Assembly (NCBI RefSeq): GCF_000189635.1
Contig: NW_002476563.1
Coordinates: forward strand, 248,001 to 312,000
Length of the DNA: 64,000 nt
Direction of reading: 5' to 3'
From: Tetrahymena thermophila SB210
Lineage: Eukaryota > Ciliophora > Oligohymenophorea > Hymenostomatida > Tetrahymenidae
The position numbers were made by a program, and so were the translations under genes. How positions within the stretch are numbered: the first letter of the stretch is position 1; each line of letters opens with the position of its first letter. The notes below the pieces were generated by a model that did not search any database, had not been told where the DNA came from, and saw nothing but the letters and a program-made list of their open reading frames with translations. Positions 11,861 to 62,322 of this stretch are shown here, in pieces.

Positions 11861-14009
11861 TCATTAATGTTTTTTAAAAATGGAAGAAACAATTCTATTA
11901 TTGACATCATTTTTTTAACAGTTCAGTTAATTCTTAAAAAAGAATTTTTTTATATATTCTTCCTGTAACTGTTAAGATTGCATTATGCAAAATTACTTTT
12001 CAAAATAATTAAGCCTCTCTTTTATTTCTATTTATTTATTTTAAAATATTTGTTATTCCCTTTTAAATAATAATAATTTACTTTGATAATCATCTTAGAA
12101 TTTATTGCTCGCAAAGTCAAGATTGAGTACATTTTCTGTTAGACCTACAAATTAAATAGCAGCTAATTAATCTTTCGTTAATAGAATTGAGATTGCTTTT
12201 TTTAAAAAAATGATGTCTTTGTATAACTCATATATGTTTAAATTTTTATTCACTTCTTATCCAACATTCATTAAAATTTTTAGATCAAATCCTTTAGACT
12301 TAAGAAATTCTTTAGATCTATATAATCTTTTTTGAAAATCAAATTGAAAAAAGAAGTTAATATATTTTAATTATAAAATTAATTTACTAAAATTTAAATA
12401 AAAGATTTTGGATCATTTATTTAGTTGGTTTATTTTTAATGGCTTTTAACTTTTAAGAAATAACTTAACTTATTGTGTCATTATTTTAATTTTTTATTTA
12501 TTCATTTCTTTTTTCTATGCTTAATCTGTTAAAAGCAGATTTTCCTTAATTAAATAATGTTTTTTTAGAATTTATTTGGATTTGACTATTCTCTATTGAT
12601 TGATTTTTGTTTATACTCATAAAACTTTCTTAGTTGCTCCTGTTTTAATTCTTTGAAAACATGCAACTTTCATCTTTTAGTTCAAAATCTTCAATCAGTC
12701 TATTACTCTATTTGGCAAAGGGCGAAACATCATTACAATTATTGTTGCTATTATTATTTTAACTGTTCTAATTAGAAAATTTACTTTTTTCTGTAGAATC
12801 TCTAAATTTAGCTGGGAATGTAGGAACCAATATTTCACTTTTATTCTAATATTCTGAGATGTCGTTAATTGATTGCTTTAAATTTAATATTTATTATGAA
12901 ATATCTTCCTTTTTTTCAATTAGATTATTATGCTCAAGTATTTTTTCGTATTTATCTTAGTAGATATTTTGTAGTAAAAGCATAAAGAAGTCTTATCTAA
13001 TAAGTTTTTGTGAATAAAACCTACCAATAAATCTTGCAATCATAACTAATGCAGCAACTCCATTTATTAATGCCAGAATTTCTGTAAATGTAGGATACTA
13101 AATTTAGAATTACTATACAATTTCATCCATAAGTATCATCGCTTAACTGTATGGGCCAAATCCCGAGTTTAAACAATATTATCTGTCAAAACTTTAGCTC
13201 ATTTAATTATATTGAATAGGTGATTAAAAATTAAGCTCATTCTGAAATAATAAACCTAAATTAACTTTTGTTTGCTATATTTATGTATTCATAGTATTGA
13301 TAGTTAATTAATTAGATAATAAATAGCTATATATACTTCTATAATTAGTTTGAATCTATTTAGAAGTAGTGTTGTATTGTTATGTTTTAAGTTTTAGATA
13401 ATAATAAGAACCTAAATTATTAATAGCATTATCAATTTCAGTTTAAGAAGCACAGTTGTCTGGTTTTGTTGTTTTTACAGAATCTAAATCTAAACATCCA
13501 TACATATTTATGTAAATTGCAGAATATATTTAATTGTCATTACTGTTATCAAGTAAAAAAGTGTAATTGCTTACTTTGGAAAAGTCTATGCAATTAAATC
13601 CTTTTAGTGAAGGGTCAGTACATTTAACAACATCAAGATCGATGGTTTAGTAAATGTTATTTTTCAAGTCTTAGTAATATAATTAAGGATAATACAAGAC
13701 ATAGGTTTTATTCTATGAGGCCTGATATTCATCTATCGTCATAGACAAATTGTAAAAGTATTAAAACCCTATAAGATCTTAGCTTAAAGGTACTTCTTTC
13801 CTATCGCTAGTGATGAAACTCTATGATCTAAATTTTGGATCAATTAAATTACAGAAATACTAATTAAATATGTAAAATATATAAAAGAGAACTATAGCAA
13901 CAGTAATCACAGATAAGAACAAACCTAAAAAAGTTCCTCTTCTATATCTTCCTTCTCCCATATTAAATTAAAATTCAGAAGAAAATAAATCTAATTTCAG
14001 AATACTCAT
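11861..14009 (-). CDS. Two-pass membrane protein, array copy A1 (subfamily A)
   Basis: Exons are 14009-12388, 12326-12082 and 12027-11861, with introns of 61 and 54 nt; the protein is 677 aa ending at TGA. Start MSILKLDLFSSEF; TM1 at about residues 28-50 (GTFLGLFLSVITVAIVLFY). The ectodomain runs to about 308 and includes four Cys shared with all copies (VKC, GFNCIDF, YGC, DNC). TM2 is at about 310-333 (EILALINGVAALVMIARF). A tail motif ILVPTFPAKFRD is followed by Asn/Ser runs. Exon 2 encodes NIYELYKDIIFLKKAI...LAAIQF and exon 3 a charged helical end (RLNYFEK...). Both intron phases (2 and 1) equal those of the other copies and reading frame is intact. It is the most downstream member of the array. 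The function is unknown to me; the two-TM layout with cytoplasmic ends resembles that of P2X or ENaC-type proteins, but no sequence motif of those families is visible. Confidence 0.88.
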
Positions 14010-14769
14010 TATTTTTATTATTTCTACCCTACTCTTTTATCTTTACTTCTAGTTTTTGATTCTACTATGTCACTAAATCTCCTTTAATTAATTTAGAATA
14101 AAATTATTGATATGATTGTTTAACACTATTTATAATGTAAATTTTATTTTTTACCATAAAAAAAAGAAGTAAATTAGTAAAAATAACTCTTAAAGAAATT
14201 ATGATAGTGGCTTATTAGAAAATGATAAAAAAAATCACAAATTAATAACTAGATTTAATATGAATAACTCAAAATAAATATAAATAATTAATTATTATGA
14301 AAAAATAAAATATATAAATGTGTTTCATTTTAAAATGATCACTATTTTGATATTTGATAACACTAGAACAAATTTTTGATAATATGAAAGTTAAATTCTT
14401 AAAGCATAAAATGATTATAATAGTAAAAATGTGTGAATTTTAAGTTTAGGTGTAAATGCAGATTTACTTCCTTCTTCAAATTAATATATAAATAAATCCA
14501 AATATTTTTTTTGATATTTTTTAATTTAATATAAATAATTAGAAGTTTCTTTTTATTGAATACATGACTAACTTATTCTGCCTTCTTAAAAAATGAAAAC
14601 TCAAATATAATTATTAAAAAATTAAAAAATATTTATGTATTTAAATGATTTAGAGAGAATTGTTAGGTAAAAGCATTTTACTAATAAAAAAATTTATTTT
14701 TTTTTACTTTAATTGTTAACATAATATTATGAATGTATACATAAAATTATTATATGAAATATTTTAACC
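14010..14769. other. Array spacer A1/B1
   Basis: Contains the 5' flank of A1 next to the gene (pyrimidine-rich about 14020-14060 on the plus strand) and the 3' flank of B1. Near 14550-14615 it carries one copy of the ~60 bp element built around CTAACTTATTCTGCC and AAAACTCAAAT that recurs downstream of many B genes. A 65-codon plus-strand frame (14754-14951) is antisense to B1 exon 3 and not a gene. Confidence 0.6.
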
Positions 14770-17114
14770 TCAATATTTTACTAATGAAGAAATTATTCTT
14801 TAATCTAGACTATCTTGTTGTTATATTTCTTATTACTGTTTTTTTAAAAATTTTTTTAGATATTATTCTTGCAATAATTAGGAATTTTAGATGCAAATCT
14901 GCTTCTCAAAATAATTTAACCTTATATTATTTAATTCTTAAAAAAAAATAGAATGAATGATTTTGTAGCTTTATTTTTAATTAAACTTACATTGATCGTT
15001 CATATTAGATATTTTATCTAAACTTTAAAATTATTCAGTGAGAGTTATAAATTATATAGCTGCTAATTGCTCTTCACTTAATATCATCATAATAGCCTTT
15101 TTCAAAAAAATAATGTCTTTGTATAAATCATAAATGTCTAAGCTTTTATTGACCTCTTTCTAAATGTACTCTATAAAATCACAATCTATCCCTCTCTACT
15201 GATAAAATATTTTTGATTTAAATTACCTTTTTTTATTTAAAAAAATGATTAAATTAATAAATTTGTGATATTGTTGATAGTTTACTTGAATTTAAAAATG
15301 GTTTTTTTAATGGTTTATTTAAAACTATTGTCTTAAATATTTTAGAGATTTTAAAAGGTAGATTCTTTCAACATCTCTTTTTTTTATCCTTAAGTTGGAC
15401 TTTATTAGATAGATTCTCTATTAATTGTATTAATAGATTATTTTGTATGAAATTAGGGCCTATTTTAGAAAGCATTGGTACCTTTCTACTAATTATTATT
15501 TTTTGGGCTTGATCTCATTTGTTAACTGTAAAACATATTTTTTAATTTAATTTTATTTTAATAATTAGATAGTTAATTTTTTTATTTATTATCAAAGCAA
15601 TTATCATTAATTTAGCTATTTTTGATTATATCTTGATCATATTATTCCTTTTACTAACTTCTTTCAGTTTGAACAAAAATACATTTTTTGTTTATAAATT
15701 CTGCTTTTGGAGAGTTTATTTCACTATTTAACAAATGAATATTATCAAAACTACTCTAATTTTTTAATTTTAAATTTAATTTCTAGCTATCTATTTTTTC
15801 GTTCTCTTCATTGAATTAATTATTAAATTTTAAGCGAAATTAACTATTGTTATTGTTATTATTTATAGAAAGAGACTAGCTTTTTTCTACATAATCTCTA
15901 AGTTTCGTAGGAAAATCAGGCACAATAATGTCTTTTTTAATAGTATTTTCTTAGGCTTCATCTACATCTTCTTCTTTTTCAGTTTTTTCTGTAATAAAAC
16001 ATGAATTATTTTCCAATTTTTTAATAAGATTATTATGCATTATGACTTTTCTATAGTTATCTTAATAAAGATTTTGAAACATTAGCATAAAGAAATCTTA
16101 TTTTATTAACTTTTAACTGTAAAATTTACCCACAATTCTAAATACAACTATTAATCCAGCAAGAGCATTTATAAGTGCTAAAATTTCTGTAATTGTTGGA
16201 TATTAAATTTGAAATTCTTAAACAATTTCATCCATTAGTATTATTTATTTACTATATGGGCCTACTCCTGTGGCTAATGCTTTAACTCTACCAAAACTTT
16301 AAGTTGCTAGAGTATATTAAATAGGAGAAGAGTAACTTTATCTCTACTAAAAAAGAAGACCTGAGTCTACATTCGTCTCTTATTTTTACGCGCTAATAGA
16401 ATTAAGTACAAATAATTCAGAGCCTAAATAATTATATATATTTCTGTAATTAGTTTGCATTGTTTTTGAATTTGTATTGTATTACTAAGATTTAAGTTTC
16501 AGCTAAAAATATGCTTCACCTCCATCTACAATACTATCAATATCAGATTGGGCTGGGCAGTTATTAGGTACAGTTGTTTTTGTCTAGTCTTGGTCATTGC
16601 AGCCATACATACTAATGAAAATAGAAGAATAAACTTGATTATTATTACTATTATCAAGCAAAAAAGTATAATTCATTACACTAGAAAAATCAATACATAT
16701 AAAACCTTCTAATTAAGGTGAAGTGCATTAAAATGTATTGAGATTAGTAGTAATGAAAATATTATTTTTAGGGTCTTAATAATAAAATTAAACAATATAA
16801 ATTAAATATGTCTGATTTAAAGATTGTTAATATTAATCTAAGCTCATTGAGAAATTATACATAAACTAAAACCCAACTAAATCATTATCAAAGGGTACTT
16901 ATATCTTATCACTTTTAATAAAGCTTTAAGATTAAAACTTTGGGTTCATTTAGTTGCTAAAATTGAGATAAAATAAGTAAATCGCATAAAAAAGTATCAT
17001 ACTAACAGCTAAAAATGTCAAGATTAATCCTAAAAAAGTGCCTCTTTTATTATGTTTGGACCCTACATTAAAATAAAACTCCGAAGAAAATAAATCTAAA
17101 CCTTAAATATTCAT
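14770..17114 (-). CDS. Two-pass membrane protein, array copy B1 (subfamily B)
   Basis: Exons are 17114-15286, 15226-14991 and 14936-14770, giving 743 aa with frame intact throughout. Start MNIQGLDLFSSEFYF, then a basic patch (KHNKRG) before TM1, which by the positive-inside rule places the N-terminus in the cytosol. The ectodomain spans about residues 51-309 and carries sequons NFS, NQT and NYT and cysteines in FQC, GFICIDF, YGC and NNC. TM2 is at about 310-333 (EILALINALAGLIVVFRI). The tail motif DIIVPDFPTKLRDYVEKS lies near 396-413 and is followed by Asn repeats. Exon 1 ends in a basic TIFKFQ segment. Exon 2 encodes SLDIYDLYKDIIFLKKAI and EEQLAAIQFITLTEQF; exon 3 is Gln/Lys-rich and probably coiled (LNYFEKQICIQNSQ...). 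The B subfamily is longer than A mainly in the tail. This gene is a good reference copy for the family. Confidence 0.9.
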
Positions 17115-18799: not shown

Positions 18800-20955
18800 T
18801 CACTAATTTTTTTTAAAAATAGAAGAAATAATTCTATTATTAATTTCATTTTATTAACTGTTCAGCTATTATTTAAAGAAGAATTTTTTTATATATTCTT
18901 CCTGTAACTGTTAAGATTGCATTATGCAAAATTACTTTTCAAAATAGTTAAGCTTCTCTTTTATTTCTATTTATTTATTTAAAAATTTTTGTTATTTTCT
19001 TTAAAATAAAATAATTTACTTTAATAATTATCTTAAAATTTATTGCTCACAAAGTCAATATTCATTACATTTTCTGTGAGACCTACAAATTAAATAGCAG
19101 CTAATTAATCTTTCGTTAATAAAATTGATATTGCTTTTTTTAAAAAAATGATCTCTTTGTATAATTAAAATATGTTTAAATTTTTATTGACCTCTTATCC
19201 AACGTTCATTAAAATTTTTAGATCAAGTCCTTTAGATTTAAGAAAATCTTTAGATCTAAATAATCTTTTTTGAAAATTAAATTAAAAAAAAAAATTAATT
19301 TATTTTAATAATAAAATTGTAATTTACTAAAATTTAAATAAAAGATTTTGGATCATTTATTTAGTTGGTTTATTTTGAATGACTTTTAACTTTTAAGAAA
19401 CAGCTAAACTTAAAGTGTCATTTTTTTAGTTTTGTATCTATATATTTCGGGTTTCAGTGCTTAATCCGTTAAAAGCAGATTTTCCTTAATTAAATGATGT
19501 CTTTTTAGAAGTTGTTTGGATCTGGCTATTAGTCATTTTTATTTGATTTTTGTTTATACTTATAAAACTTTTTTAAGTGCTAATGTTTTATTTCTTTGAA
19601 AACATGTAACTTTCATCTTTTAGGTCAAAATCTTCAGTCAGTCTATTACTCTATTTAGCAAAGGGCGAAGTATCATTACAATAATTATTGCTATTATTAT
19701 TTTAATTTTTCTAAAAAGAAAATAGATTTTTTTCTGGAGTATCTCTAAATTTAGCTGGGAATGTAGGAACCAACATTTCACTTTTATTCTAATATTCTTC
19801 TGAGATATCGTCTGTTGATTATTTTAAATTTTATATTTATTATGAAATATCTTTTATTTTATCAATTAGATTATTATGCTCAAGTATTTTTTCGTATTTA
19901 TCCTAATAAATGTTTTATAGCAAAAGCATAAAGAAGTCTTATCTAATAAGCTTTTGTGAATGAAATCTACCAATAAATCTTGCAATCACAACTAATACAG
20001 CAACTCCATTTATTAGTGCCAGAATTTCTGTAATTGTAGGATACTAAATTTAGAATTACTATACAATTTCATCCATAAGTATCATTGTTTAACTGTATGG
20101 ACCAAATCCTTACTTTAAAGAAATTTATCTATCAAGACTTTAGCTTATTTAACTATATTATATTGGAGATTAAAAATTTACTTCATTCTGAAATAATAAA
20201 CCTAAATTAACTTTTGTTTGCTATATTTAGGTATTCATAGTTATGATATTAAATTAACTAGATACTAGATAATTATATATACTTCTATAATTAGTTTGAA
20301 TCTATTTAGAAGTAGTGTTGTATTATTATGTTTTAAGTTTTAGGTAATAATAAGAACCTAAATTATTAATAGCATTATCAATTTCAGTTTAAGAAGCACA
20401 GTTGTCTGGAATAGTTGTTTTTACAACATCTAAATCAAAACATCCATACATATTTATGTAAATTCCAGAATATATTTAATTGTTATTACTGTTATCAAGT
20501 AAAAAAGTGTAATTGCTTACTTTAGAAAAATCTATGCAGTTAAATCCTTTTAGTGAAGGGTCAGTACATTTAACAACATCAAGATCGATGGTTTAGTAAA
20601 TGTTATTTAACAAGTCTTAGTAATAAAGTTAAGGATAATATAAGACATAGGTTTTATTCTATGAGGCCTGATATTCATCTATAGTCATAGACAAATTGTA
20701 AAAATACTAAAACCCAATAAGGTCTTAGCTTAAAGGTACTTCTTTCTTATCACTTGTGATGAAACTCTAAGATCTAAATTTTGGATCAATCAAATTACTA
20801 AAATACTAATTAAATATGTAAAATATATAAAAGAGAACTATAGCAACAGTAATCACAGATAAAAATAAACCTAAAAAAGTTCCTCTTTTATATTTTCCTT
20901 CTCCCATGTTAAAGTTAAATTCAGAAGAATATAAATCGAATTTCAAAATACTCAT
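18800..20955 (-). CDS. Two-pass membrane protein, array copy A2 (subfamily A)
   Basis: Exons are 20955-19328, 19264-19020 and 18966-18800, giving 679 aa. Exon 2 (245 nt) and exon 3 (167 nt) have exactly the lengths of A1, and the 1,628-nt first exon ends in the same phase, so the frame is open. Start MSILKFDLYSSEFNFNMGEG. Most differences from A1 fall in the ectodomain between the last cysteine and TM2 and in the tail. Together with B2 it forms the second A+B pair, lying ~6.9 kb from the first (A1+B1), which points to duplication of the pair as a unit. Confidence 0.88.
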
Positions 20956-21869: not shown

Positions 21870-24251
21870 TCAATATTTTACTAATGAAGAAAATATTCTT
21901 TAGTCTATAACATCTTTCTGCTATTTTTCTTATTACTGCTTTATGAAAAATTTTTAAAAATATTCCTCTTACAATATTTAGGAATTTTATATGCAAATCT
22001 GCTTCTCAAAATAATTTAACCTAATATTATTTATTTCTTAAAAAAAAATAGAATAATTTTGTAGCTTTATTTTTAATTTATAAAAATAACTTACATTTGT
22101 CGTTTATATTAGATATTTTATCTAAACTTTAAAATTATTCTGTGAGAGTTATAAATTATATAGCTGCTAATTGCTCTTTGCTTAGTATCATCATAATAGC
22201 CTTTTTCAAAAAAATAATGTCTTTGTATAAATCATAAATGTCTAAACTTTTATTGACCTCTTACTAAATGTACTTTATAAAATCACAATCTATCCCTCTC
22301 TCCTGAAAAAATTTTATTGATTTAAATTTCCTTTTTTTATTTAATAAAATGATTAAATTAATAAATTTGTGAAATTTTGATTATTTACTTGAATTTAAAA
22401 ATGGTATTTTTAATGATTTATTTAAAACTATTGCTTTAAATCTTTTTGAAATTTTAATAGGCAGATTCCTTCAATATCTCTTTTTTTTATGCTTAAGATG
22501 AATCTTATTAGATAGACTCTCTATTATTAATATTAATAGGTTATCTATTAAATTATGACCTATTTTAGAAAACATTCACACTCTTCTACTAATTCTATAT
22601 TTTAGGGATTTGTTAGCAGTTATACAAATTTTTTAATTTCATTTTATTTTAATAATTAGATAGTTATATAATTATGTTATTTACTATCAAAGTAATTATC
22701 GCTGATTTAGCTTTTTTTAATTATATCTTCCTCATCTTATTATTTTTACTAATTTTTTTCAGCTTGAGAGAAAGTTAATTTTTTGTTTATCGATTCTGCG
22801 TTTGGAGAGTTTATTTCATAGTTAGTCAAGTCACTATTACCTAAACTACTCTAAATTTTTAAATTTAGCATATTTTCTTCAATATTTTAAAAATTCTTTT
22901 TTAAGTTTATATTTAATCTATTGCTATCTATTTTTTCGTTCTCTTCATTCAATTAGTCATTCAATTTTAAATTAAATTTACCATTATTATTGTTATTATT
23001 TAAAGAAAGATATTGGCTTTTTTCTACATAATCTCTAAGTTTCGTTGGAAAATCAGGCACAATAATGTCTTTTTTAATACAATCTTCTTAGACATCATCT
23101 ACCACTTCTTCTTTTTCAGTTTTTTCAGTAATCAAATAAGAAGTATTTTCTTACTTTTTAATAAGATTATTATCGATTATGATTTTTCTATAGTTATCTT
23201 AATAAAGATTTTGAAGCATTAGCATAAAGAAGTCTTATTTTATTAACTTATAACTGTAAAATTTACCCACAATTCTAAATACAACTATCAATCCAGCCAC
23301 AGCATTTATAAGTGCTAAAATTTCTGTAATTGTTGGATATTAAATTTGAAATTATTAAACAATTTCATCCATTAGTAATATTTATTTACTGTATGGGCCT
23401 AATCCTAATGCTAATGAAGAATTTCTATCAAAACTTTAAGTTGCTAGAGTATATTAAATAGGAGAAGTGTAAGTTTATGTCTACTAAAAAAGGAGACCTG
23501 TGTCTACATTAGTTTATTATGTTTACGTGCTGAGAGAATTAAGTACAAATTAATTAGAGGCTACATAATTATATATGCTTCTGTAATTAGTTTGCATATT
23601 TTTTGAATTTGTATTGTATTACTAGGTTTTGAGTTTCAGCTAAAAAAATGCTTAATCTCCATCTATAATACTATCAATATCTACTTGGGCTGCACAATTA
23701 TTAGGTACAGTTGTTTTTACATAGTCTTGATCTTAGCAGCCATACAAATGAATTAAAATAAAAGAATAAACTTGATTATTATTACTATTATCAAGCAAAA
23801 AAGTATAATTCCTTACTTTAGAAAAATCAATGCATATAAAACCTTATAATTAAGGTGTAATGCATTAAAATGTATCGAGATTGATAACATTGTAAATATT
23901 ATTTTTAGGGTCTTAATAGTAAAGTTAAACAACATAAATAAGATATGTCTGATTCAAAGATTGTTAATATTAATCTATACTCATTGAGTAATTATTAAAA
24001 TATTAAAACCCAACTAAATCATTTTCGAAAGGTACTTCTATCCTATCATTTTTAATGAAGCTTTAAGATTAAAATTTTGGGTTTATTTAGTTGCTAAAAT
24101 TGAGATAAAATAAGTAAATCGCATAAGAAAGTGTCGTAGTAACAGCTAAAAACGACAGGATTAATCCTAAAATAGTGTTTCTTTTATAATACTTGGGTCC
24201 TATATTAAAATAAAACTCTGAAGAGAATAAATCTAAACCTTGAATATTCAT
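21870..24251 (-). pseudogene. Two-pass membrane protein, array copy B2, frameshifted in the tail
   Basis: Exons by homology are 24251-22389, 22330-22095 and 22036-21870. The protein reads normally from MNIQGLDLFSSEFYF through TM1, the four-Cys ectodomain, TM2 and the DIIVPDFPTKLRDYVEKS motif. Near 22665 a 4-base TATA insertion relative to copies B1 and B3 shifts the frame. Exon 1 is 1,863 nt, a multiple of three, where every intact copy leaves a remainder of two. Past that point the frame stays open through exon 1 but exon 2 would be read out of frame to an early TGA, so the conserved C-terminal module would be lost. Exons 2 and 3 themselves are undamaged (236 and 167 nt). It may be a young pseudogene or may make a protein with an altered, shortened tail; a sequence error cannot be excluded. 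Confidence 0.75.
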
Positions 24252-24359
24252 GGCTTTTTATAGAGATAAAACGCCCAGCTAGTTATACTTCTAGAGGTTT
24301 TTATTTGCTTTTTGCTTCTACTTTCTATTTATTTTTATTTACTATTAAATAAATTAGTC

Positions 24360-26693: not shown

Positions 26694-29083
26694 TCAATAT
26701 TTTACTAATGAAGAAAATATTCTTTAGTCTATAACATCTTACTGTTATATTTCTTGTTACTGCTTTATGAAAAATTTTTTTAAATATTCTTCTTGCAATA
26801 TTTAGGAATTTTATATGCAAATCTGTTTCTCAAAATAATTTAACCTAATATTATTTATTTCTTAAAAAAAATAGAATGAATGATTTTGTAGTTTTATTTT
26901 AATTGATAAAAATAACTTACATTCATCACTTATATTAGATATTTTATATAAACTTTAAAATTATTCTGTGAGAGTAACAAATTATATAGCTGCTAATTGC
27001 TCTTCGCTTAGTATCATCATAATAGCCTTTTTCAAAAAAATAATGTCTTTGTATAAATCATAAATGTCTAAGCTTTTATTGACCTCTTACTCAATGTACT
27101 TTATATAATCACAATCTATCCCTCTCTCCTGAAAAAATATTTTTGATTTAAATTTCCTTATTATACAATAAAATGATTAAATTAATAAATTTGTGTATTT
27201 TTGATATTTTACTTGAATTTAAAAATGGTATTTTTAATGATTTATTTTAAACTATTGCTTTAAATACTTTTGAAATTTTAAAAGGCAGATTCCTTCAATA
27301 TCTCCTTTTTTTATGATTAAGATAAATCTTATTAGATAGACTCTCTATTATTAATATTATTAGATTATCTTGTGTTAAATAAGGATCTACTTTAGAAAAC
27401 AGCCACACTTTTCTACTAATTCTATGTTTTTGGGCTTGATAGAAAATACTTTTAAGAGCCGATTTATTAACAGCTATACAAATTTTTTTATTTCATTTTA
27501 TTTTAATAATTAGATAGTTAATTTTGTTATTTATTATCAATTTTAATTATATCTTGGTCGTTCTATTCTTTTTACTAGTTTCTTTCAGTTTGAAAGAGAA
27601 TTAATTTTTTGCTTTTCGATTCTGCATTTGGAGTATTTATTTCATAGTTTGGAAAATCGCTATGATCTATACTGGTCTAATTTTTTAAATTTAGTACACT
27701 TTCTTCAGTATTTTAAAAATTCTTTTTTAAGTTTACAATTATTCTATTGCTATCTATTTTTTCGTTCTCTTCATTCAATTAGTCATTCAATTTTAAATGA
27801 AATTTACCATTGTTATTGTTATTATTTTAAGAAAGATATTGGCTTTTTTCTACATAATCTCTAAGTTTCGTTGGAAAATCAGGCACAATAATGTCTTTTT
27901 TAATACAATCTTCTTAGACTTCATCTACCACTTCCACTTCATCTTTTTCAGTTTTTTCAGAAATCAAAGAAAAAATATTTTCTTAGTTTTTAATAAGATT
28001 ATTATGGATTATGATTTTTCTATAGTTATCTTAATAAAGATTTTGAAGCATTAGCATAAAGAAGTCTTATTTTATTAACTTATAACTGTAAAATTTACCC
28101 ACAATTCTAAATACAAATATCAATCCAGCAACAGCATTTATAAGTGCTAAAATTTCTGTGATTGTTGGATATTAAATTTCAAATTATTAAACAATTTCAT
28201 CCATTAGTAATATTTATTTACTGTATGGGCCTACTCCTGTTTTTAATGCAATAGTTCTATCAAAACTTTAAGTTGTTAGAGTATATTAAATAGGAGAAGA
28301 GTAAGTTTATCTCTACTAAAAAAGAAGACCTGAGTCTACATTAGTTTCTTATTTTTACGCGCTGAGAGAATTAAGTACAAACTAAGCAGAGGCTACATAA
28401 TTATATAAGTTTCTGTAATTAGTTTGCATTTTTCTTGAAGTTGTATTGTATTACTATGTTTTGAGTTTCAGCTAAAAATATGCTTAATCTCCATCTATAA
28501 TATTATCAATATCATTTTAGGCTGGGCAGTTATTAGGTACAGTTGTTTTTGTTTAGTCTTGATCATTGCAGCCATACAAACTAATGAAAAGAGAAGAATA
28601 AACTTGATTATTATCACTATTATCAAGCAAAAAAGTATAATTACTTACATTAGAAAAATCAATGCATATAAAACCTTATAATTAAGGTGTAGTGCATTAA
28701 AATGTATCGAGATCGATAACATTGTAAATATTATTTTTAGGGTCTTAATAGTAAAGTTAAGCAACATAAATAAGATATGTCTGATTCAAAGATTGTTAAT
28801 ATTAATCTATACTCATTGAGAAGTTATACATAAACTAAAACCCAACTAAATCATTATCGAAAGGTACTTCTATCCTATCATTTTTAATGAAGCTTTAAGA
28901 TTAAAATTTTGGGTTTATTTAGTTGCTAAAATTGAGATAAAATAAGTAAATAGCATAAGAAAATGTCATAGTAACAGCTAAAAAGGATAGGATTAATCCT
29001 ACAATAGTGTTTCTTTTAAAATACTTGGGCCCTATATTAAATTAAAACTCTGAAGAGAATAAATCTAAACTTTCAATATTCAT
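26694..29083 (-). CDS. Two-pass membrane protein, array copy B3 (subfamily B)
   Basis: Exons are 29083-27213, 27156-26921 and 26860-26694, giving 757 aa. I read the frame from the start to early exon 2 and found it intact; exons 2 and 3 have the standard lengths. Start MNIESLDLFSSEFQFNIGP. The acidic stretch before the tail motif (EKTEKDEVEVVDEVQE) is longer than in B1. B3 and B4 are the most alike pair in the window: their three exon lengths are equal (1,871, 236 and 167 nt) and the similarity continues about 1 kb into the 5' flank, so the duplication is recent or has been refreshed by gene conversion. Plus-strand frames at 27628-28054 are antisense shadows of this gene's tail. Confidence 0.9.
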
Positions 29084-47482: not shown

Positions 47483-49626
47483 TCACTAATTTTTTTTAAA
47501 AATAGAAGAAATAATTCTATTATTAATTTCATTTTTATTATTGTTCAGTTAGTATTTAAAAAAGAATTTTTTTATATATTCTTCCTGTAACTGTTAAGAT
47601 TGCATTATGCAAAATTACTTTTCAAAATAATTAAGCTTCTCTTTTATTTCTATTTATTTATTTAAAAATTTTGTTATTTTCTTTAAAATAATAATAATTT
47701 ACTTTGATAATCATCTGAAAACTTATTTTTCACAAAGTCAAGATTCAGTACATTTTCTGTGAGACCTACAAATTGAATAGCAGCTAATTAATCTTTGGTT
47801 AATAGAATTGAGATTGCTTTTTTTAAAAAAATGATGTCTTTGTATAATTCATATATATTTAAATTTTTATTGACCTCTTATCCAACATTCATTAAAATTT
47901 TGAGATCTAATCCTTTAGATTTAAGAAAATCTTTAGATCTATATAATCTTTTTTGAAAATTAAATTAAAAAAAATTAATTTATTTTAAAAATAAAATTGT
48001 AATTTACTAAAATTTAAATAAAATATTTTGAATCATTTGTTTAGTTGGTTTATTTTGAATGGCTTTTAACTTTTAAGAAACAGCTAAGCTTAAAGTGTCA
48101 TTGTTTTAGTTTTTTTTTCGAGTTTCAATGATTGATCCGTTAAAAGCAGATTTTGCTTAATTAAATAATGTCTTTTTAGAATTTGTTTGGATCTGGCTAT
48201 TAGTCATTTTTATTTGATTTTTGTTTATACTTATAAAACTTTTTTAAGTGCTAATGTTTTATTTCTTTGAAAACATGTAACTTTCATCTTTTAGGTCAAA
48301 ATCTTCAATCAGTATATTACTCTATTTATATAAGGGCGAAGAGTCATTACAATAATTGTTGCTATTATTATTTTAATTGTTCTTAGAAGGAAATATATTT
48401 TTTTCTGGAGTATCTCTAAATTTAGCTGGGAATGTAGGAACCAACATTTCACTTTTATTCTAATACTCTTCTGAGATAATGTCTGATGATTATTTTAAAT
48501 TTATAATTTATTATGAAATATCTTCCTTTTTTTCAATTAGATTATTATGCTCAAGTATTTTTTCGTATTTATCTGAGTAGATGTTTTGTAGCAAAAGCAT
48601 AAAGAAGTCTTATTTAATAAGCTTTTATGAATAAAATCTACCAATAAATCTTGCAATCATTACTAATGCTGCAACCCCATTTATTAGTGCCAGAATTTCT
48701 GTAATTGTAGGATACTAAATTTAGAATTACTAAACAATTTCATCCATAAATATCATCGTTTAATAGTATGGACCAAATCCTTACTTTAAAGAAAATTATC
48801 TATCAAAACTTTAACTTATTTAATTATATTGTATTGGAGACTAAAAATTAAGCTCATTCTGATATAATAAACCTAAGTTAACTTTTGTTTCCTATATTTA
48901 GGTATTGAGAGTAATGATAGTATATTAATTAGAGTATATATAATTATATATACTTCTATAATTAGTTTGAATCTATTTAGAAGTAGTGTTGTATTATTAT
49001 GTTTTAAGTTTTAGGTAATAATAAGAACCTAAATTATTAATAGCATTATCAATTTCAGTTTATGAAGCACAGTTATCTGGAATAGTTGTCTTTTAAACAT
49101 CTAAATCTAAACATCCATACATATTTATGTAAATTCCAGAATAAATTTAATTGTCATTACTGTTATCAAGTAAAAAAGTGTAATTGCTTACTTAGGAAAA
49201 ATCTATGCAGTTAAATCCTTTTAGTGAAGGGTCAGTACATTTAACAACATCAAGATCGATGGTTAAGTAAATCTGATTTTTCAAGTCTTAGTAATAAAAT
49301 TAAGGATAATACACAACATAGGTTTTATTCTGTGAAGCCTGATATTCATCCAAAGTCATAGATAAATTGTAAAATTATTAAAACCCTATAAGATCTTAGC
49401 TTAAAGGTACTTCTTTCCTAAAGCTTGTGATGAAACTCTATGATCTAAATTTTGGATCAATCAAATTACTAAAATACTAATTAAATATGTAAAATATATA
49501 AAAGAGAACTATAGCAACAGTTACCACAGATAAAGACAAACCTAAACAAGTTCCTCTTTTATATCTTCCTTCTCCCATATTAAAGTTAAATTCAGAAGAA
49601 AATAAATCGAATTTAAGAATGCTCAT
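47483..49626 (-). CDS. Two-pass membrane protein, array copy A3 (subfamily A)
   Basis: Exons are 49626-48008, 47947-47703 and 47649-47483, giving 676 aa. Exon 2 and 3 lengths match A1 and A2 exactly and phase is kept. Start MSILKFDLFSSEFNFNMGEG. It lies ~27 kb from A2, separated by the run of B genes, so the A and B copies were interleaved by more than one event. The ectodomain cysteine blocks and the ILVPTFPAKFRD tail motif are conserved. Confidence 0.88.
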
Positions 49627-50916: not shown

Positions 50917-53128
50917 TCATAATTTTATTAATATTGAAGACATTATCCTTTAATCTATTTCGTTATATTATTTGTTTTACTAGCATCTTTAAATAAATTT
51001 ATATATATATTTTTATTGCAAATCTTATGATCGTAGAATGCAAAACTATTTTTCAAAATAATTAAGCTTGCTTTTTATTTCTTAAAATCATAAAAATATA
51101 AATACATGATTAGTTATTAAAATAATTAATTTACAATCATAACTAAGTTTTGATTAGCTATTCTTTAAATCTAGGTTCAAAAATTGTTCTGAAAGACCTA
51201 TACAATATATAGCAGAGAGTTGATCTTAGCTAAGAAGCATAGTAATTGCTTTTTTCAAAAAAATAATATCTTTATAAAGCTAAAATACATCTAAGCTTGT
51301 ATTAATCTCTTGTTAAACTTTGTGGATAATTTTATTCTCTATACCTTTTGATTTTAAAAATTCTTTTGTCTTGAAAATTCTAATTTTTATAATAAATAAA
51401 TAAAACGTTAAACAAAAAATTATTTATTTATTTTTTTAAAAAATTTTACTTAAATTTAAATATAATATTTTTTATTTATTATTTTATTGAAGGACTTTAA
51501 ATCTTTCTAAATTTAGAAGAATAAGCTTGACTAAAATCTTCTTTATTTCTATTCTAATAGATAATTTTATTATTTAGATTTTCTAAATTATCTTTAATAT
51601 TAAGCTCTCTTGTTTACTTTTAACTTTATTTACTTGAATTTTAACTTTCCTTTTAATAATTAGAAGGTTGGAGAAAGTTTAATAAAAAACTTTAAGACTT
51701 GGTCTATGAACTTGTTAAAAAACTAAAATTTGGAGAATTGATCAACAGATTTTAATCACTTTTTTTGTTTCTTGTACTAATTTATTCTACAGTAATTAGC
51801 TGCTAGTCATCTTTTTTATACATTAAATTTTCTTCTTTATTCATATATTTTTATAAATTTTAAGTGGCATCGTCTTTTGATTAATGAGTCAATTAATTTT
51901 TATCAACATGGATTTTTGATTTAGTATTGAGACTTGGTATAAAAATTTGCTTTTTTAAATTCTTTTCCAAGTTATCATCTGAAAATTCTTGCTTTATATT
52001 TGTTAATTAATCAAAATTATAATTCTTTTAAATTATAAAATGATTATGTTAAAGTATTTATTCATACTTGCTCCTAAAGATGTTTTAAAGTATGAGCATA
52101 AAGAAGTCTTAGTAAATTAGCTTTTAGGAATATAACCTACAAAAAAATCTAGAAATGATAACTAGAATAGCAACTCCATTGACAAGTGCCAAAATTGAAG
52201 TTATTGTAGGGTACTAAATATTAATTTTTTATACAATTTCATCAATTCTGATAATTACTTACATATATGGACCCACACCTGATAACAAAGATAGATTTCT
52301 ATCAAATGATTAAATTACCTAATTATGCTATATTGGGGAAAAATAATTTTCTTAACTTTAAGATAATAATCCTATGCTAACCTAAGTCTCTTAAGTTTAT
52401 GTATAGATAGTATTAACTATGTATTAATTAGATAAAACATAGTTGTATACACTCCTATAATTAGTTTGAATCTACTACGAAGTAGTATTGTATTATTAAG
52501 TTTTAAGTTTAATATAGAAGTAAGCATCTTTTCCATTAATTACATTATCTATATCAATTTAATTAGCACAATTACTAGGGAATGTAGTTTTTACTTAATC
52601 TAAGTCTTAACAACCATACATACTAATATATATCTAAGAGTAAACATTATTATTATTACTATTATCAAGTAATAGAACTTAGTCTTAAATCTTTGAGAAA
52701 TCAACACAATAGAAGCCTTATAAAGCAGGATCATTGCATTTAACAATATCAAGATTGATAGTATTAAATATATTATTTAAAGTATCCTAATAGAAATATT
52801 AAGCATAAAAAACTGCATATGTTTAATTATAAATTTGTTAATACTGATCTATTGTCATTGAGAGATTATAATAAAATTAAAACCCTACTAGATTCTAGCT
52901 TAAGTCTACTTTTTTCTGATAGTCTGTGATAAAACTTTGAGATCTAAAGTTTGGACTAATCAAATTATTCAAATATTAATAAAGCATATAAACGAAGTAA
53001 TAAAAAACAGCACCATAAGAAAGTATAGATAATATGAAGCCAAAGCAACTACCTCTTTTTTACTGTTATTAAGTTCCAATATTAAAATAAAACTCAGAAG
53101 AAAATAAATCATATTTGTTAATATTCAT
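50917..53128 (-). CDS. Two-pass membrane protein, array copy A4 (diverged subfamily A)
   Basis: Exons are 53128-51450, 51379-51135 and 51080-50917, giving 695 aa. I read the ectodomain and TM2 in full and found no break. Start MNINKYDLFSSEFYFNIGT. Exon 2 is 245 nt as in the other A genes, exon 3 is one codon shorter. TM2 reads SILALVNGVAILVIISRFF. The exon 2 end differs from all others (SAIYCIGLSEQFLNLDL in place of AAIQF...). Divergence in flanks and coding sequence suggests an older copy than A1-A3. Confidence 0.87.
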
Positions 53129-54011: not shown

Positions 54012-56338
54012 TCATTTTGTCATAAATATAGATGAACATATTCTTTAGTCTATTTCATTTTTTTGTTTATTCTCTTATTATTTGAGTAAGAACTTTTATA
54101 AATACAAATCTTATAATTCCTGAGACTGTAATATACAAAGCTACTTTTCGAAGTAATTTAATTTGTTATCTATTTCTATTTATTTTTTAATACAATAAAT
54201 AAACATATGCTTTAGATCCTTATTTATTAAGACTTTTTTATTAAAGCCATATTTTTAAAAAATTAAATTAAAAGCCTATTTGGTATGGGTCAAAACAGAG
54301 TTTATGTGATTTAAATTTTTGAGAATTTACAATATTTCAGCCAAAAAACTGAATGTAAATTTATATGAAATAACTTTATTAAGCTCCTATTAGATGTTCA
54401 TCTCTTTTTAAATTTAGATTAAAGAAATTTTCAGTAAGACTTATACATTAAATAGCCGCTAATTATTGATTGCTTAAAAGTATTGATATAGCCTTTTTTA
54501 TAAAAATTACATCTTTATAGAATTCATATATGTCTAAACTTTTGTTGACTTCGAACTAAATGTGATTTATCAATTATTTATCTATTCCTTTAGACTTAAA
54601 ATATTTTTTCGATTTGAAAAACCTTTTTGAAAAAAATTTTAAATATCAAATTTGATTAATAAAAATATAATTTAAATATTTTACTTAAATTTAAAAATAA
54701 AGTTTTTAATCAGTTTTCTTATTGAATTGCTATAAATTGCTTTGAATTTCTCAGTTAGGGTTTTATTTTTCAATTTATTATTGCTTTCCAAATAAATAGT
54801 TTCTTTCTTTTGAGTTTGTTAAATTTTATGAGTAGTTTTTTTATTTTATTTCTTTAAAATATTAGATTTACTCGAATCAATACTTTCTTTTTGATAGAAA
54901 ACTGCTCTTGGACTCTTAACGTTTCCTTTTGGGGAAATAGTTAGTAGGCTACCTAATTGTTTAGCTTTGTTTGTAAAATCGTAAAGTAAAATTTTATTAT
55001 TTTTTTATAAGGTTTAACTTGTTTTGTTTATTTGAGTGAGTAATATATATCTGGTTTTTAATTTTCTTCGCTTTTTATACTACTTTAAAATATATTTTAA
55101 TTGAAATCACTAGCCTGAGATTTTTCAACATTATCTTTTAATTTAATTTAAAAATTTGGGATAAAAATATTATTGCTATTGTTCCTTTCAAACATTTCAT
55201 CATCTTATTTTAGATTTGATTCATTAATAGATTTATTTTATTAAATAAATTTGTTTTATTATAGTATCTTTAAGTATTTATCTTGATAAATATTTTGAAG
55301 TAGTATCATAAAGAAATCCTATTTGATTAATCTTTGTGAATAAAATCTACCAAAATATCTTAAAACTGTAACTAAAGTAGCTACTCCATTTACAACAAAC
55401 AGCAAATATTTCTGTGAAAGTGGGAAATTAAATTTCAAATTACTAAACAATTTCATCCATTTGTATAATTACTTAATTATATGGACCTAACCCTTATTTT
55501 AATGAGAATTCCTTATTAAAAGTTTTATTTATTTAATTATACTAGATTGGAGAGGAAAATGTTTCTTAACTTTAAAATATTAACCCTTAATTGACACTAA
55601 TCTCTTGCATTTAGGTGCTTAAGGTGTTGACAAAAAACTAATTAGATGAAAGGTAATTGTAAATATTTCTATAATTTGTTTAAATCTTTTTGGATGTTGT
55701 GTTATATTGCTATATTTTAAGTTTTAAATAAAAATAAGAATCTAAAACATTAATTACATTATCAATTTCAGTTTAATTGGCAAAATTATTAGGAATATTA
55801 GTTTTTACATTATCTATATCTAAGCAACCGTATGTATTAATCTATATTGAAGAGTAAACAGTTAACTAATCACTATTATCAAGCAATAAAGTGTAATTAC
55901 TTATTTAGGAAAAGTCTATACAATAGAATCCATTCAAATAAGGATCAGTGCATCTTACAATATCAAGGTTAAATGTATTGTAAATATTATTTTTAATATC
56001 TTAGTAGTAAAATTAAGCATAAAAAATAATATATGTTTTATTTTAAGATGTTTAATATTCATCAATAGTCATTGAATAATTATAATTAAACTAAAATCCA
56101 ACCAAATCTAAAGTCAAAGGCACTTCTTTCCTGTTTTCTGTGATAAAACTTTAAGATCTAAATTTCGGATTTATCAAGTTATTGAAATATTAATTAAATA
56201 AGTAAAAAAAGTAAAAAAGTACAACCACAGTAGCTATCACAGATAACGATAGTCCCAAACTGTGCCTCTTTTGTATTTCTAGCTTCCCATATTAAAATAT
56301 AATTCTGAAGAAAATAAATCGTACTTGAGAATATCCAT
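54012..56338 (-). pseudogene. Two-pass membrane protein, array copy A5, frameshifted
   Basis: Homologous throughout to subfamily A, from MDILKYDLFSSELYFNMG to a TGA at 54012-54014. A one-base deletion just before TM1 (near 56255) runs the frame into TGA within a few codons. A one-base insertion at the start of TM2 (near 55400) shifts it again. Exon 1 (54685-56338) is 1,654 nt, the wrong remainder for the splice phase, which implies at least one further indel. The second intron region is also longer than elsewhere (about 200 nt). The four cysteine blocks and the exon 3 helical end remain recognisable. It is probably a pseudogene; sequence error at several sites is less likely. Confidence 0.78.
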
Positions 56339-57144: not shown

Positions 57145-59544
57145 TCAATATTTTAATAATGAAGAAAATATTCTTTAATCTATAGCATCTTGTTCATATA
57201 TTTCTTATTACTATTTTATGTAAAATTTTTTTAGATACCCTTCTTGCAATAGCTAGGAATTTAATATGCAATTCTGCTTCTCAAAGTAATTAAACCCTAA
57301 ATTGTTTATTTCTTAAAAAAAATAAATTTAATTTGTTGCTATACTTTTAATTTATAAAAATAAATAACTTACATTCAACATTTATGTTAGATGTTTTATC
57401 AAAACTTTAAAATTTTTCAGTGAGAGTTACAAGCTATATAGCTGCTAATTGCTCCTCGCTTAATATCATCATAATAGCCTTTTTCAATAAAATGATGTCT
57501 TTGTATACATCATAAATGTTTAAATTCCTATTGACCTCTTCCTCAATTTACTTTATAAAATCATATTCTATCCCCTTCTACTAAAAAAATGCTCTAGACT
57601 TAAATTACCTTTTTTTATTTAATAAAATGATTAAATTAATAAATTTGTGAATTTTTTGATGCTTTACTTGAATTTAAAAATGGTACTTTTGATAGTTTAT
57701 TTAAAACTATAATTTTTAATATTTTTTAAATATTAATGGGCATATTCCTTCAAGTTTTCCTTTTTTTATGTTTGAGTAAAATTTTATTAGATAGACTCGC
57801 TATTACTAATATTATTAGATTGTTTAGTATTAAATAAGGATCTACTTTAGAAAACACTTGCACCTTTCTACTAACTCTATGTTTTTTGGTTTGATAGAAA
57901 TTACTTTTGAGAGCTGATTTATTAATTGTTTAACAAAACTTTTAATTTTGTTTTATTTAGAGGACTCGATAGTTAAGACTATTCTGTATTATTACAGCAA
58001 TTTTCACTAATTTAAGTATTTTTAATTACATCTTGCTCATTTTATTCATTTTACTAACTTTTTTCAATTCGAGAGAAAATTAATTTACTGTTTATTGAAT
58101 CTGCCTTTGGAGAGCTTGTTACGGAGTAAACCTGATCGTTATTATTAGCACTGTTCTAAATTTTAAAATTTTCTTCACTATTTTATAAATTATTTATTAA
58201 GTCAATATTTAATTTCTAGTTTTCCGTTTTTTCATTTTCTTCATTTATTTAGTCGTCATTAAAATTTAAAACAACTTAACAATTATTATTATTTAAAGTT
58301 CGATTTTGATTTTTTTCAACATAATCTCTAAGTTTTGTTGGAAAGTCGGGCACAATAATGTCTCTTTTTAAACAATTTTCTTAGATTTCACCTACCACTT
58401 CTTCTTTTTCAGTTTTTTCAGTTTAAATCAAGCAAGAAATATTTTCTTAGTTTTTGATAAGATTATTATGGTTTATGATTTTTCTATACTTATCTTAGTA
58501 AAGATTTTGAAGTAAGAGCATAAAGAAGTCTTATTTTATTAATTATTAACTGTAAAATTTGCCAACAATTCTAAATACAACTATTATTCCAGCAACAGCA
58601 TTTATAATTGCCAAAATTTCAGTAATTGTTGGATATTAAATTTGAAATTATTAAACAATCTCATCCATTAGTAATATTTATTTACTATAGGGGCCTAATC
58701 CTGATTATTATGCAGAAATTCTATCAAAATTTTAAGTTGTTTGAGTATATTAAATAGGAGAAGAGTAAGTTTATCTCTACTAAAAAAGGAGACCTGAGTC
58801 TACATTAGTTTCTTATTTTTACGTGCTGAGAGAATTAAGTACAAATTAAGCAGAGGATACATAATTATATAAGTTTCTGTAATTAGTTTGCATCTCTTTT
58901 GAATTTGTATTGTATTACTATGTTTTGAGTTTCAGTTAAAAATATGCTTAAACTCCATCTATAATATTATCAATATCTATTTGGTCTGGACAATCATCAG
59001 GTACAACTGTTTTTACTAAGTCTTAATCTCTGCAACCATACAAATGAATGTAAATAGAAGAATAAACTTGATTATTATTTGTATTATCAAGCAAAAAAGT
59101 ATAGTTACCTACATTAGAAAAATCAATACATATAAAACCTTATAACTCTGGTGTTGTGCATTAAAATGTATTGAGATAGATTGTATTGTAAATATTATTT
59201 TTAGAGTCTTAATAGTAAAGTTAAACAATATAAATAAGATAAGTCTGATTCAAAGATTGTTAATATTAATCTACACTCATCGAATAATTATACATAAACT
59301 AAAACCCAACTAAATCATTTTCTAGAGGTACTTCTATCCTACCATTTGTAATAAAACTTTAAGATTAAAATTTTGGGTTTATTTAGTTACTAAAATTGAG
59401 ATAAAATAAGTAAATGGCATAAGAAAGAGTGGTAGTAATAGCTAAAATTGATAGGATGAATCCTAAGATAGTGTTTCTTTTATAATGTTTTGGCCCTATA
59501 TTAAAATAAAACTCTGAAGAAAATAAATCGAAACTTTATGTCAT
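57145..59544 (-). CDS. Two-pass membrane protein, array copy B8 (subfamily B)
   Basis: Exons are 59544-57668, 57608-57373 and 57311-57145, giving 759 aa with phase kept. The start region differs from its neighbours: ATG-ACA-TAA-AGT gives MTQSFDLFSSEF, apparently from small changes in the usual MNIQGLDLF codons. The tail motif DIIVPDFPTKLRDYVEK is intact. It is the first of the second B cluster, beyond the A3-A5 group. Confidence 0.87.
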
Positions 59545-59915
59545 GGTTTTTTTTGAGATATGTGCGTTGCAGCTAACTATACTTTTAGAGGTTTTTATTT
59601 GCTTTTTGCTTCTACTTTTTATTTATATATATTTACTTATTAAATAAATTATTTTTAATTAAAGGCTGGTTTAACTAAATATAAATAAAAAAATAAAAAA
59701 GTAAAGTTTTAATTTTATTCTCTTAGGTTTATTAATTTTTATTTTTTTCATGTAATTTAATGTAGAATTTATTAAACAAATTGAATTACAATAAAAACTT
59801 GAATATATATTTTTACTCAATTAATTGGCAAACTTTTTTTTGAAGGTACTTATATATATTATTTAATCTTTGTCATTTTATGATATATAAAATTATATAA
59901 TGCGAAGTATTATAA
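59545..59915. other. Short array spacer B8/B9
   Basis: Only ~370 bp, the shortest intergenic distance between family copies. It holds a shortened B 5' flank and a truncated 3' flank; the CTAACTTATTCTGCC element is absent. Confidence 0.65.
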
Positions 59916-62322
59916 TCAACATTTTAATAATGAAAAAAATATTCTTTAATCTATAACATCTTGTTGATGTATTTCTTATTACTATTTTATGTAAAATTTT
60001 TTTAGATACTCTTCTTGCAATAGCTAGGAATTTAATATGCAAATCTGCTTTTCAAAATAATTTAACCTTCCATCGTTTATTTCTTAAAAAAATAAAGTGA
60101 TTTAGATGCTATACTTTTAATTTAAAAAAAGAACTTACATTCAATATTCATGTTTGGTGTTTTATCAAAACTTTAAAATTATTCAGTGAGAGTTACAAAT
60201 TATATAGCTGCTAATTACTCTTCGCTTAACATCATTGTAATAGCCTTTTTCAAAAAAATAATGTCTTTGTATAAATCATAAATGTTTAAATTCCTATTGA
60301 CCTCTTCCTCAATTTACTTTATAAAATCATATTCTATCCCCTTCTACTGAAAAAATGTTTTAGACTTAAATTACCTTTTTTTATTTAATAATATGATTAA
60401 ATTAATAAATCTCTAATTTTTTTGAATATTTACTTAAATTTAAAAATGGTATTTTTAATGGTTTATTTAAAACTATTGTTTTAAATATTTTTTAAATGTT
60501 AATAGTCCCTTTCCTTCAATATCTCCTTTTTTTATCCTTGTGTTAAATTTTATGAGTTGAATACTCTATTAGCAATATTAATAGATGATCTGTTATTAAA
60601 TTAAGATCTACTTTAGAAAACACTGGCACTTTTCTATTTATTCTACATTTTCGGGCTTGATAGAAGTTACCTTTGAGAGCTGATTTATTAGCTACAAAGC
60701 AAATTGTTTAATTTTATTTTATTTTGAGAATTCAATAATTGATTCTTGTATGTATTATAATAGTAGTTTTCATTTAATTAAATATCTTTAATTGTGCTTT
60801 GCTCATTTTATTCATTTTATTAATTTGTTACTACTTGAGGAAAACTGAATTTTTTGTTTATTGATTCTTCATTTGGAGAGTTTATTACATAGTTATTCAG
60901 ATCGTTATTATTTATAGAGTTCTAATTTTTTAAATTTAGTGTATTTTCTTCATTGTTTTAAAAATTATTTTTTAAGTCTATATTTACTTTCTAGTTTTCT
61001 GTTTTTTCATTTTCTTCATTTATTTAGTCATTGAATTTTAAAAGATATTAACAATTTTTAGTATCATTTAAAATAGGACTTTGACTTTTTTCTACATAAT
61101 CTCTAAGTTTTGTTGGAAAGTCAGGTACAATAATGTCTCTTTTTAAACAATTTTCTTAAATTTCATCTTCCACTTCATCTTTTTAAGTTTTTTCAGTTGA
61201 AATCAAACTAGAAATATTTTCTTAGTTGTTAATAAGATTATTATGGATTATGATATTTTTGTATTTATCTTAGTAAAGATTTTGAAGCATTAGCATAAAG
61301 AAGTCTTATTTTATTAACTTTTAACTGTAAAATTTACCCAAAATCCTAAATACAACTATTAATCCAGCAACAGCATTTACAAGTGCTAAAATTTCTGTAA
61401 TTGTTGGATATTAAATTTGAAATTTTTAAACAATTTCATCCATTAATAATATTTATTTACTATATGGGCCTAATCCTAATGCCAATGAGGAATTTCTATC
61501 AAAATTTTAAGTTGTTTAAGTATATTAAATAGGAGAAGAGTAAGTTTATCTTTATTAAAAAAGGAGACCTAAGTCTACCTGAGTTTCTTATTTTTATGCG
61601 CTCAAAGAATTAAGTACAAATTAAGGAGAGTATGCATAATTATATATGTTTCTGTAAGTAGTTTGAATTTCTTATGAATTTGTATTGTATTACTAAGTTT
61701 TAAGTTTCAGCTAAAAATATGCTTATTATCCATTTATAACGTTATCAATATCCGTTTGTGCTGGACAATTATCAGGTACAGTTGTTTTTACAAAGTCCTA
61801 ATCTCTGCAACCATACATATGAATGTAAATAGAAGAATAAATTTGATTATTATTATTATTATCAAGCAAAAAAGTATAGTTACCTACATTGGAAAAATCA
61901 ATACATCTAAAACCTTGTAATTAAGGCGTTGTGCATTGAAACGTATTGAGATTGATAGTATTGTAAGTGTTATTTGTAGGGTCTTAATAGTAAAGCTAAA
62001 CAACATAAACTAGATATGTCTGATTCAAAGATTGTTAATATTAATCTATGGTCATTGAATAATTATACATAAACTAAAACCCAACTAAATCATCTTCGAG
62101 AGGTACTTCTATCTTTTCATTTGTAATAAAGCTTTAAGATTAAAATTTCGGGTTTATTTAGTTGCTAAAATTGAGATAAAATAAGTAAATGGTATAAGAA
62201 AGAGTCGTAGTAACAGCTAAAAACGAGAGTATTAATCCTAAGAGAGTGTTTCTTTTATAATGCTTTGGCCCTAAATTAAAATAAAATTCTGAAGAAAATA
62301 AATCTAAAGCTTAAATATTCAT
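59916..62322 (-). CDS. Two-pass membrane protein, array copy B9 (subfamily B)
   Basis: Exons are 62322-60434, 60374-60139 and 60082-59916, giving 763 aa with phase kept. Start MNIQALDLFSSEFYFNLGP. The tail motif reads IIVPDFPTKLRDYVEKS. It is the most upstream copy on the minus strand, so it marks the 5' edge of the array within this window. Exon 3 ends KC-TGA rather than KY-TGA. Confidence 0.88.

What the first reader, a model, noticed from the sequence alone, without database searches (positions are those of the whole stretch)
11861..62322. ~50 kb single-orientation array of an unnamed two-pass membrane protein family
Fourteen full-length-scale copies plus fragments, all on the minus strand, share a fixed gene plan: three exons, intron phases 2 and 1, exon 2 of 236 or 245 nt, exon 3 of 167 or 164 nt. 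Twelve keep frame. Each has a four-Cys, sequon-bearing ectodomain between two TM helices and long cytoplasmic tails. I do not recognise a described family. The layout suggests a diversifying surface receptor or self-recognition family, which is inference.
Basis: partly seen in the sequence, partly recalled or inferred. Interest (0 to 1): 0.85.

Follow-up and report, generated by a model that had tools for sequence, protein, structure and literature searches.

The report
Giant ciliate family of two-pass proteins
A ciliate genome carries more than 150 copies, mostly head to tail, of a two-pass membrane protein whose membrane-entry end resembles that of universal ER-Golgi cargo receptors; its outer domain looks conserved rather than diversified.

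Summary
The array is real: fourteen gene-scale minus-strand copies and one 3' fragment lie at 11861-62322. Two searches of the same genome give at least 154 family loci on 46 contigs; 102 of 103 close neighbours share a strand. The window copies match no Pfam family convincingly. Among 60 family cores the most frequent Pfam hit by far is ERGIC_N, the N-terminal domain of ERV41/ERV46 cargo receptors (20 of 60; next 4 of 60), and a sister copy passes its curated cut-off (7.7e-8). The second ERV domain was not found in the family. So this is a hugely expanded family related to ERV41/46 through its TM1 end, with its own 4-Cys lumenal domain and a conserved C-terminal module. "Diversifying receptor" is not supported: the ectodomain is under purifying selection and the cytoplasmic tail is generally the fastest part. 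Function is inferred: sorting or cargo-receptor-like.

The parts
11861..14009 (-). copy c1, intact, 677 aa: exons 14009-12388, 12326-12082, 12027-11861; ends in KKHQ
14770..17114 (-). copy c2, intact, 743 aa: exons 17114-15286, 15226-14991, 14936-14770
18800..20955 (-). copy c3, intact, 679 aa: exons 20955-19328, 19264-19020, 18966-18800; ends in KKNQ
21903..24251 (-). copy c4, frame changes in the exon-1 tail (between about 22716 and 22663); exon 2 at 22330-22095, exon 3 matched at 22037-21903
26694..29083 (-). copy c5, intact, 757 aa: exons 29083-27213, 27156-26921, 26860-26694
32725..35115 (-). copy c6, intact, 757 aa: exons 35115-33245, 33188-32953, 32891-32725; recent duplicate of c5 (blocks 26635-30081 and 32666-36113 are 95.9% identical)
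36413..38831 (-). copy c7, intact, 768 aa: exons 38831-36925, 36866-36631, 36576-36413
39654..42061 (-). copy c8, intact, 764 aa: exons 42061-40170, 40111-39876, 39820-39654
43461..45868 (-). copy c9, intact, 760 aa: exons 45868-43989, 43925-43690, 43627-43461
46634..47071 (-). 3' fragment (exon 2-3 region only), frame shifted
47483..49626 (-). copy c10, intact, 676 aa: exons 49626-48008, 47947-47703, 47649-47483; ends in KKNQ
50917..53128 (-). copy c11, intact, 695 aa: exons 53128-51450, 51379-51135, 51080-50917
54397..56338 (-). copy c12, pseudogene with at least three frame changes
57145..59544 (-). copy c13, intact, 759 aa: exons 59544-57668, 57608-57373, 57311-57145
59916..62322 (-). copy c14, intact, 763 aa: exons 62322-60434, 60374-60139, 60082-59916

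Best explanation
This is one array of a very large ciliate (Tetrahymena-like) family of two-pass membrane proteins that shares its N-terminal end (cytosolic leader, TM1 and the first lumenal stretch) with the ERGIC_N domain of the universal ER-Golgi receptors ERV41/ERV46/ERGIC. Both termini face the cytosol and a loop of about 265 residues with four conserved Cys faces the lumen or the outside. Shown here: gene plan, two hydrophobic segments, family size, same-strand arrays, purifying selection on the loop and on the C-terminal module, a faster tail, ERGIC_N similarity through relatives. Inferred: the topology, that the loop binds a client or ligand, that the C-terminal module (exons 2-3) docks cytosolic machinery, and that the proteins act in sorting or receptor-like handling of secretory or surface proteins. 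Copy number presumably grows and shrinks by unequal crossing-over, with partial duplications and decayed copies left behind.
For: ERGIC_N is the most frequent Pfam hit among 60 family cores: 20 of 60, best E 0.0022; next families 4 of 60. Ten sister-subfamily proteins: 10 of 10 hit it best, E 0.047 to 7.7e-8, one over the curated cut-off (these loci were chosen through an ERGIC_N scan, so the count is not independent). Reversed N-termini of the same ten: 0 of 10. Sister to window: 31% identity over 449 aa; L077 and L073 against the 60-row profile, hhalign E 2.2e-58 and 1.2e-32. A 23-row profile against two true ERV N-termini of this genome: probability 84%, E 7.7e-6. Windowed shuffles: 1 of 200 reached the observed score in each of two tests. 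Constraint. Expansion. Segment trees that disagree.
Against: Window copies barely hit ERGIC_N (1 of 13, E 0.05). In one search two other families with 3-4 members had better single E-values (UPF0302 0.00084, AlphaC_N2 0.0018). Against the single ERGIC3-like sequence the profile match is weak (probability 2-4%); against the C399 N-terminus 24%, and there one shuffle scored above the real sequence. PF07970 was found at 5 places, none at a family locus. No CxxC/CCxxC; long C-terminal tail; KKxx ends 3 of 12 copies. The AlphaFold model has pLDDT 34. No expression, localisation or ligand data.
Confidence: 0.5

Rival explanations
1. Diversifying cell-surface receptor or self/non-self recognition family, with the ectodomain as the variable part.
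For: Large arrays, sequon-bearing 4-Cys ectodomain, long tail. The highest ectodomain window has pN/pS 0.91 at residues 180-199. In two pairs (c5/c6 and c2/c9) the ectodomain ratio is slightly above that of the tail.
Against: Ectodomain dN/dS is 0.16-0.74 in the 14 pairs computed and below the tail in 12 of them; 0 of 39 windows exceed 1. 19 alignment columns are invariant across 60 family cores, 14 of them in the ectodomain, the four Cys included. MTA/MTB features are not met.
Confidence: 0.15
2. A ciliate two-pass family unrelated to ERV41/46; the ERGIC_N similarity is convergent TM1 composition.
For: The match covers one TM segment; window copies hit in only 1 of 13; the second ERV domain was not found; single-sequence comparisons are weak.
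Against: ERGIC_N in 20 of 60 cores that were not chosen by it; a sister copy over the curated cut-off; reversed controls 0 of 10; 10 of 12 sampled non-ERV loci from a genome-wide ERGIC_N scan belong to this superfamily (not a random sample).
Confidence: 0.25
3. Two-pass ion channel family of the P2X or DEG/ENaC kind.
For: Two TM segments with a large loop.
Against: No P2X match in the genome at E<=1; no channel family among the 25 of 42 families shown for 60 members; the 60-row profile finds one PDB sequence, at E 0.65. DEG/ENaC was not searched for by itself.
Confidence: 0.05

Closest known systems
ERV41/ERV46 (ERGIC1-3) ER-Golgi cargo receptors
   Same: Two TM segments around a large loop; ERGIC_N detectable in relatives, over the cut-off in a sister copy
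   Different: COPIIcoated_ERV (PF07970) not found in the family; no CxxC/CCxxC; C-terminal tail of about 350-440 residues; KKxx in 3 of 12; at least 154 loci against five PF07970 places on three contigs in the same genome. ERV features from passages of PMC4729789
Plant and chromalveolate PDI-C (ERGIC_N + thioredoxin + COPIIcoated_ERV)
   Same: Another lineage-specific remodelling of an ERV-type protein
   Different: No thioredoxin hit here; the paper's table gives 0 PDI-C for Tetrahymena thermophila (passage of PMC4729789)
Tetrahymena leucine-rich-repeat gene expansions
   Same: Lineage-specific expansion with tandem duplication (passages and section 8 of PMC6564038)
   Different: Young LRR genes are built of 90-bp exon arrays; here three-exon genes with no LRR hit
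Tetrahymena MTA/MTB mating-type proteins
   Same: Membrane proteins; the germline copies lie in a tandem array
   Different: Head-to-head pairs, five TM helices, GFR domain (passages of PMC10901506 and PMC3608545)

Membership tests
ERV41/ERV46 (ERGIC) | ERGIC_N domain PF13850 | tested here: inconclusive
   Window copies 1 of 13, E 0.05; 20 of 60 family cores, best 0.0022; sister copy 7.7e-8, over the cut-off
ERV41/ERV46 (ERGIC) | COPIIcoated_ERV domain PF07970 | tested here: not met
   Genome search at E<=0.001: 5 places on C314, C399 and C81 (703-707 kb), none at a family locus; absent from the full lists and from the part shown (25 of 42 families; 25 of 30)
ERV41/ERV46 (ERGIC) | Two TM helices separated by a large lumenal loop | tested here: met
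   Hydropathy, 12 of 12 intact copies
ERV41/ERV46 (ERGIC) | CxxC and CCxxC motifs of the Erv46 type | tested here: not met
   Loop Cys at 130, 140, 172, 186, none closer than 10 residues
ERV41/ERV46 (ERGIC) | Short tails; C-terminal KKxx or xKxx | tested here: not met
   C-terminal tail of about 350-440 residues; KKxx in c1, c3, c10 only, 3 of 12
ERV41/ERV46 (ERGIC) | Beta-sandwich lumenal fold | tested here: inconclusive
   AlphaFold pLDDT 34, not interpretable
ERV41/ERV46 (ERGIC) | Cycling between ER and Golgi | not testable with these tools
   needs microscopy
MTA/MTB self-recognition | Five TM helices, GFR domain, head-to-head pair | tested here: not met
   Two TM segments, no Pfam hit at E<=1 in 6 copies, one orientation in the array
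P2X receptors | PF00864 | tested here: not met
   no match in the genome at E<=1

The most novel reading that the evidence does not exclude
An ERV41/46-type endomembrane receptor was co-opted in ciliates into a new repertoire of more than 150 receptors, for sensing or sorting, in which the client-binding lumenal domain is held fixed and the signalling or sorting tail diversifies: an inside-out version of the usual variable-receptor logic.
Probability: 0.15. Interest if true: 0.8.

Novelty: new variant of a known kind. Interest (0 to 1): 0.55.

Why it matters
ERV41/46-type proteins are few elsewhere (six in Arabidopsis, passage of PMC4729789). Here a genome with five PF07970 places on three contigs holds at least 154 loci of a probable relative. 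That makes an uncharacterised ciliate family testable: it predicts a secretory-pathway location, a disulfide-bonded lumenal domain and a shared C-terminal docking module. It also shows that in an expanded membrane family the fast-evolving part can be the inside, so that array size alone is no sign of recognition.

Tried and rejected
AlphaFold on the 13 window cores gave pLDDT 34; I ran no fold search on it, because a low-confidence model gives meaningless matches. PDB sequence searches with one copy, the 13-row and the 60-row profile gave 0, 0 and 1 (E 0.65) matches. No tRNA or Rfam feature in the window. A viral-contig scan found no relative. P2X was searched for and not found. Two of the 12 loci fetched from the ERGIC_N scan (L071, L075) were not shown to belong; the N-terminal exon of L075 matches the family profile only at E 0.028. 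Paper searches (listings) showed no title or abstract start that describes this family; only open-licence PMC papers are covered.
Full report
Observation. The window is contig C15, 248001-312000, of a 101,022,631-base, 445-contig genome. It is AT-rich (21.9% GC from the base counts) and holds long frames under genetic code 6. Self-comparison shows direct repeats of up to 3.5 kb. I placed starts, aligned the 3' parts of 13 copies and a fragment and wrote splice models. Twelve of fourteen gene-scale copies have an intact spliced frame. Both introns are GT-AG; intron 1 is 56-70 nt, intron 2 is 53-62 nt. c4 breaks frame in the tail, c12 is a decayed copy, and a 3' fragment lies at 46634-47071.

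The splice models rest on sequence, not on RNA. In the spliced frame, exons 2+3 have dN/dS 0.19-0.61 in the 14 of 66 copy pairs computed. The peptide recurs in the genome: 163 matches at E<=10, with 150 of 336 candidates scored.

Topology. Twelve of twelve intact copies show two hydrophobic segments near residues 27-45 and 311-329, four Cys in the loop (five in c1) and three to five sequons there. That both ends are cytosolic is inferred from the loop sequons and the basic flanks.

Family size. One query gave 112 scored matches of 386 candidates, a divergent member 116 of 406. Their union is 154 loci on 46 contigs; 133 lie in 30 arrays, and of 103 neighbour pairs closer than 15 kb, 102 share a strand and 1 does not. 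These are matches to the core of exon 1, not checked one by one for intactness (the window's pseudogene c12 is among them), and they are lower bounds because candidates beyond the scoring cap were not scored. The window array has the most matches, 14; the next has 13.

What it is. The window copies hit no Pfam family convincingly (0 of 6 at E<=1; ERGIC_N in 1 of 13 at E 0.05). Sixty cores from the genome (13 window rows, 47 others) gave ERGIC_N 20 times, best E 0.0022; the next families had 4 members. Two families with three or four members had a better single E-value there (UPF0302 0.00084, AlphaC_N2 0.0018), so the weight lies in the recurrence. A genome-wide ERGIC_N scan gave 45 matches at E<=10: ERV genes on C314, C399 and C81, then an array on C116 (four places over the cut-off), C129 and others, and two places that fall inside family members (C39, C79). 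I fetched 12 of the non-ERV places; 10 carry the same architecture, and two (L071, L075) were not shown to. The ten all have ERGIC_N as best Pfam family, E 0.047 to 7.7e-8, one over the curated cut-off; they had been chosen by that scan, so this is not an independent count. Reversed N-termini of the ten gave no ERGIC_N hit (0 of 10). The sister copy L066 is 31% identical to c9 over 449 residues, and L077 and L073 match the 60-row profile at E 2.2e-58 and 1.2e-32. A 23-row superfamily profile against two true ERV N-termini gives probability 84% and E 7.7e-6 over the TM1 region. Single-sequence matches are weaker: probability 2-4% for the ERGIC3-like protein and 24% for the C399 N-terminus. In windowed shuffles 1 of 200 reached the score in each of two tests; in the second that shuffle scored higher than the real sequence.

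What it is not. PF07970, the second defining ERV domain, is found at five places on three contigs, none in this family. The Cys motifs and short tails of ERVs are absent; KKxx ends three of twelve copies, c1, c3 and c10. I therefore do not file it as an ERV41/46 member: it is a probable relative through ERGIC_N with its own lumenal and cytosolic parts. The defining ERV features were read in passages of PMC4729789.

Selection. Ectodomain dN/dS is 0.16-0.74 and tail dN/dS 0.47-0.78 in the 14 pairs; the ectodomain is the lower in 12 and slightly the higher in two, c5/c6 and c2/c9. Pooled over 16 within-group pairs, none of 39 windows has pN/pS above 1; the ectodomain maximum is 0.91 at residues 180-199, the tail maximum 0.99. 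The method is crude: Nei-Gojobori counts, pairs not independent, synonymous sites near saturation in distant pairs. Trees of three segments place c7, c9, c13, c14 and c1, c3, c10 differently, with mixed support, which suggests conversion or mosaic duplication. c5 and c6 lie in blocks of about 3.45 kb that are 95.9% identical.

Mechanism, inferred. Unequal exchange makes and loses copies. The constrained loop presumably folds on two disulfides and binds a client or ligand; the constrained C-terminal module presumably docks cytosolic partners; the tail between them is loosely constrained. By its N-terminal kinship the simplest place of action is the ER-Golgi system or delivery to the surface. 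No call tests this.

Literature. PMC6564038 (passages; section 8) reports tandem expansion of species-specific genes in ten Tetrahymena species, mainly of seven known domains, most of them weakly expressed in axenic growth. A family without a Pfam domain would presumably not appear among those seven. The listings of my searches showed no paper describing this family.

Noticed in passing
window 4932-10712 (+): A 1926-aa open frame matches the TMEM131L fifth Ig-like domain (PF24501, E 3.2e-13), directly beside the array; TMEM131 proteins act in secretion (recalled).
   Followed up: no
window 30607-32354 (-): A stretch richer in G+C between c5 and c6 holds frames that do not look like the family; the 332-aa frame has Cys/His spacing like zinc fingers by eye, no Pfam hit at E<=0.1.
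   Followed up: partly
window 17183-17650 and 17696-18163; 24082-24367 and 24364-24649: Short direct duplications (97.2% and 96.5% identical): one upstream of c2, one that repeats the start and TM1-coding part of c4.
   Followed up: partly
L075 (C162:267801-270300): Another membrane-protein gene with a DIFGK...GFGG-type N-terminus turned up in the ERGIC_N scan; weak match to the family profile (E 0.028).
   Followed up: partly
C100 (42,582-base contig): A short contig on which nine family matches in one orientation span about 10-41 kb.
   Followed up: no
genome-wide: The exon 2+3 module also matches at places where the (capped) core searches listed no family member, for example C13, C114 near 638 kb, C284 and C428 near 338 kb, so further genes may share it.
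   Followed up: no
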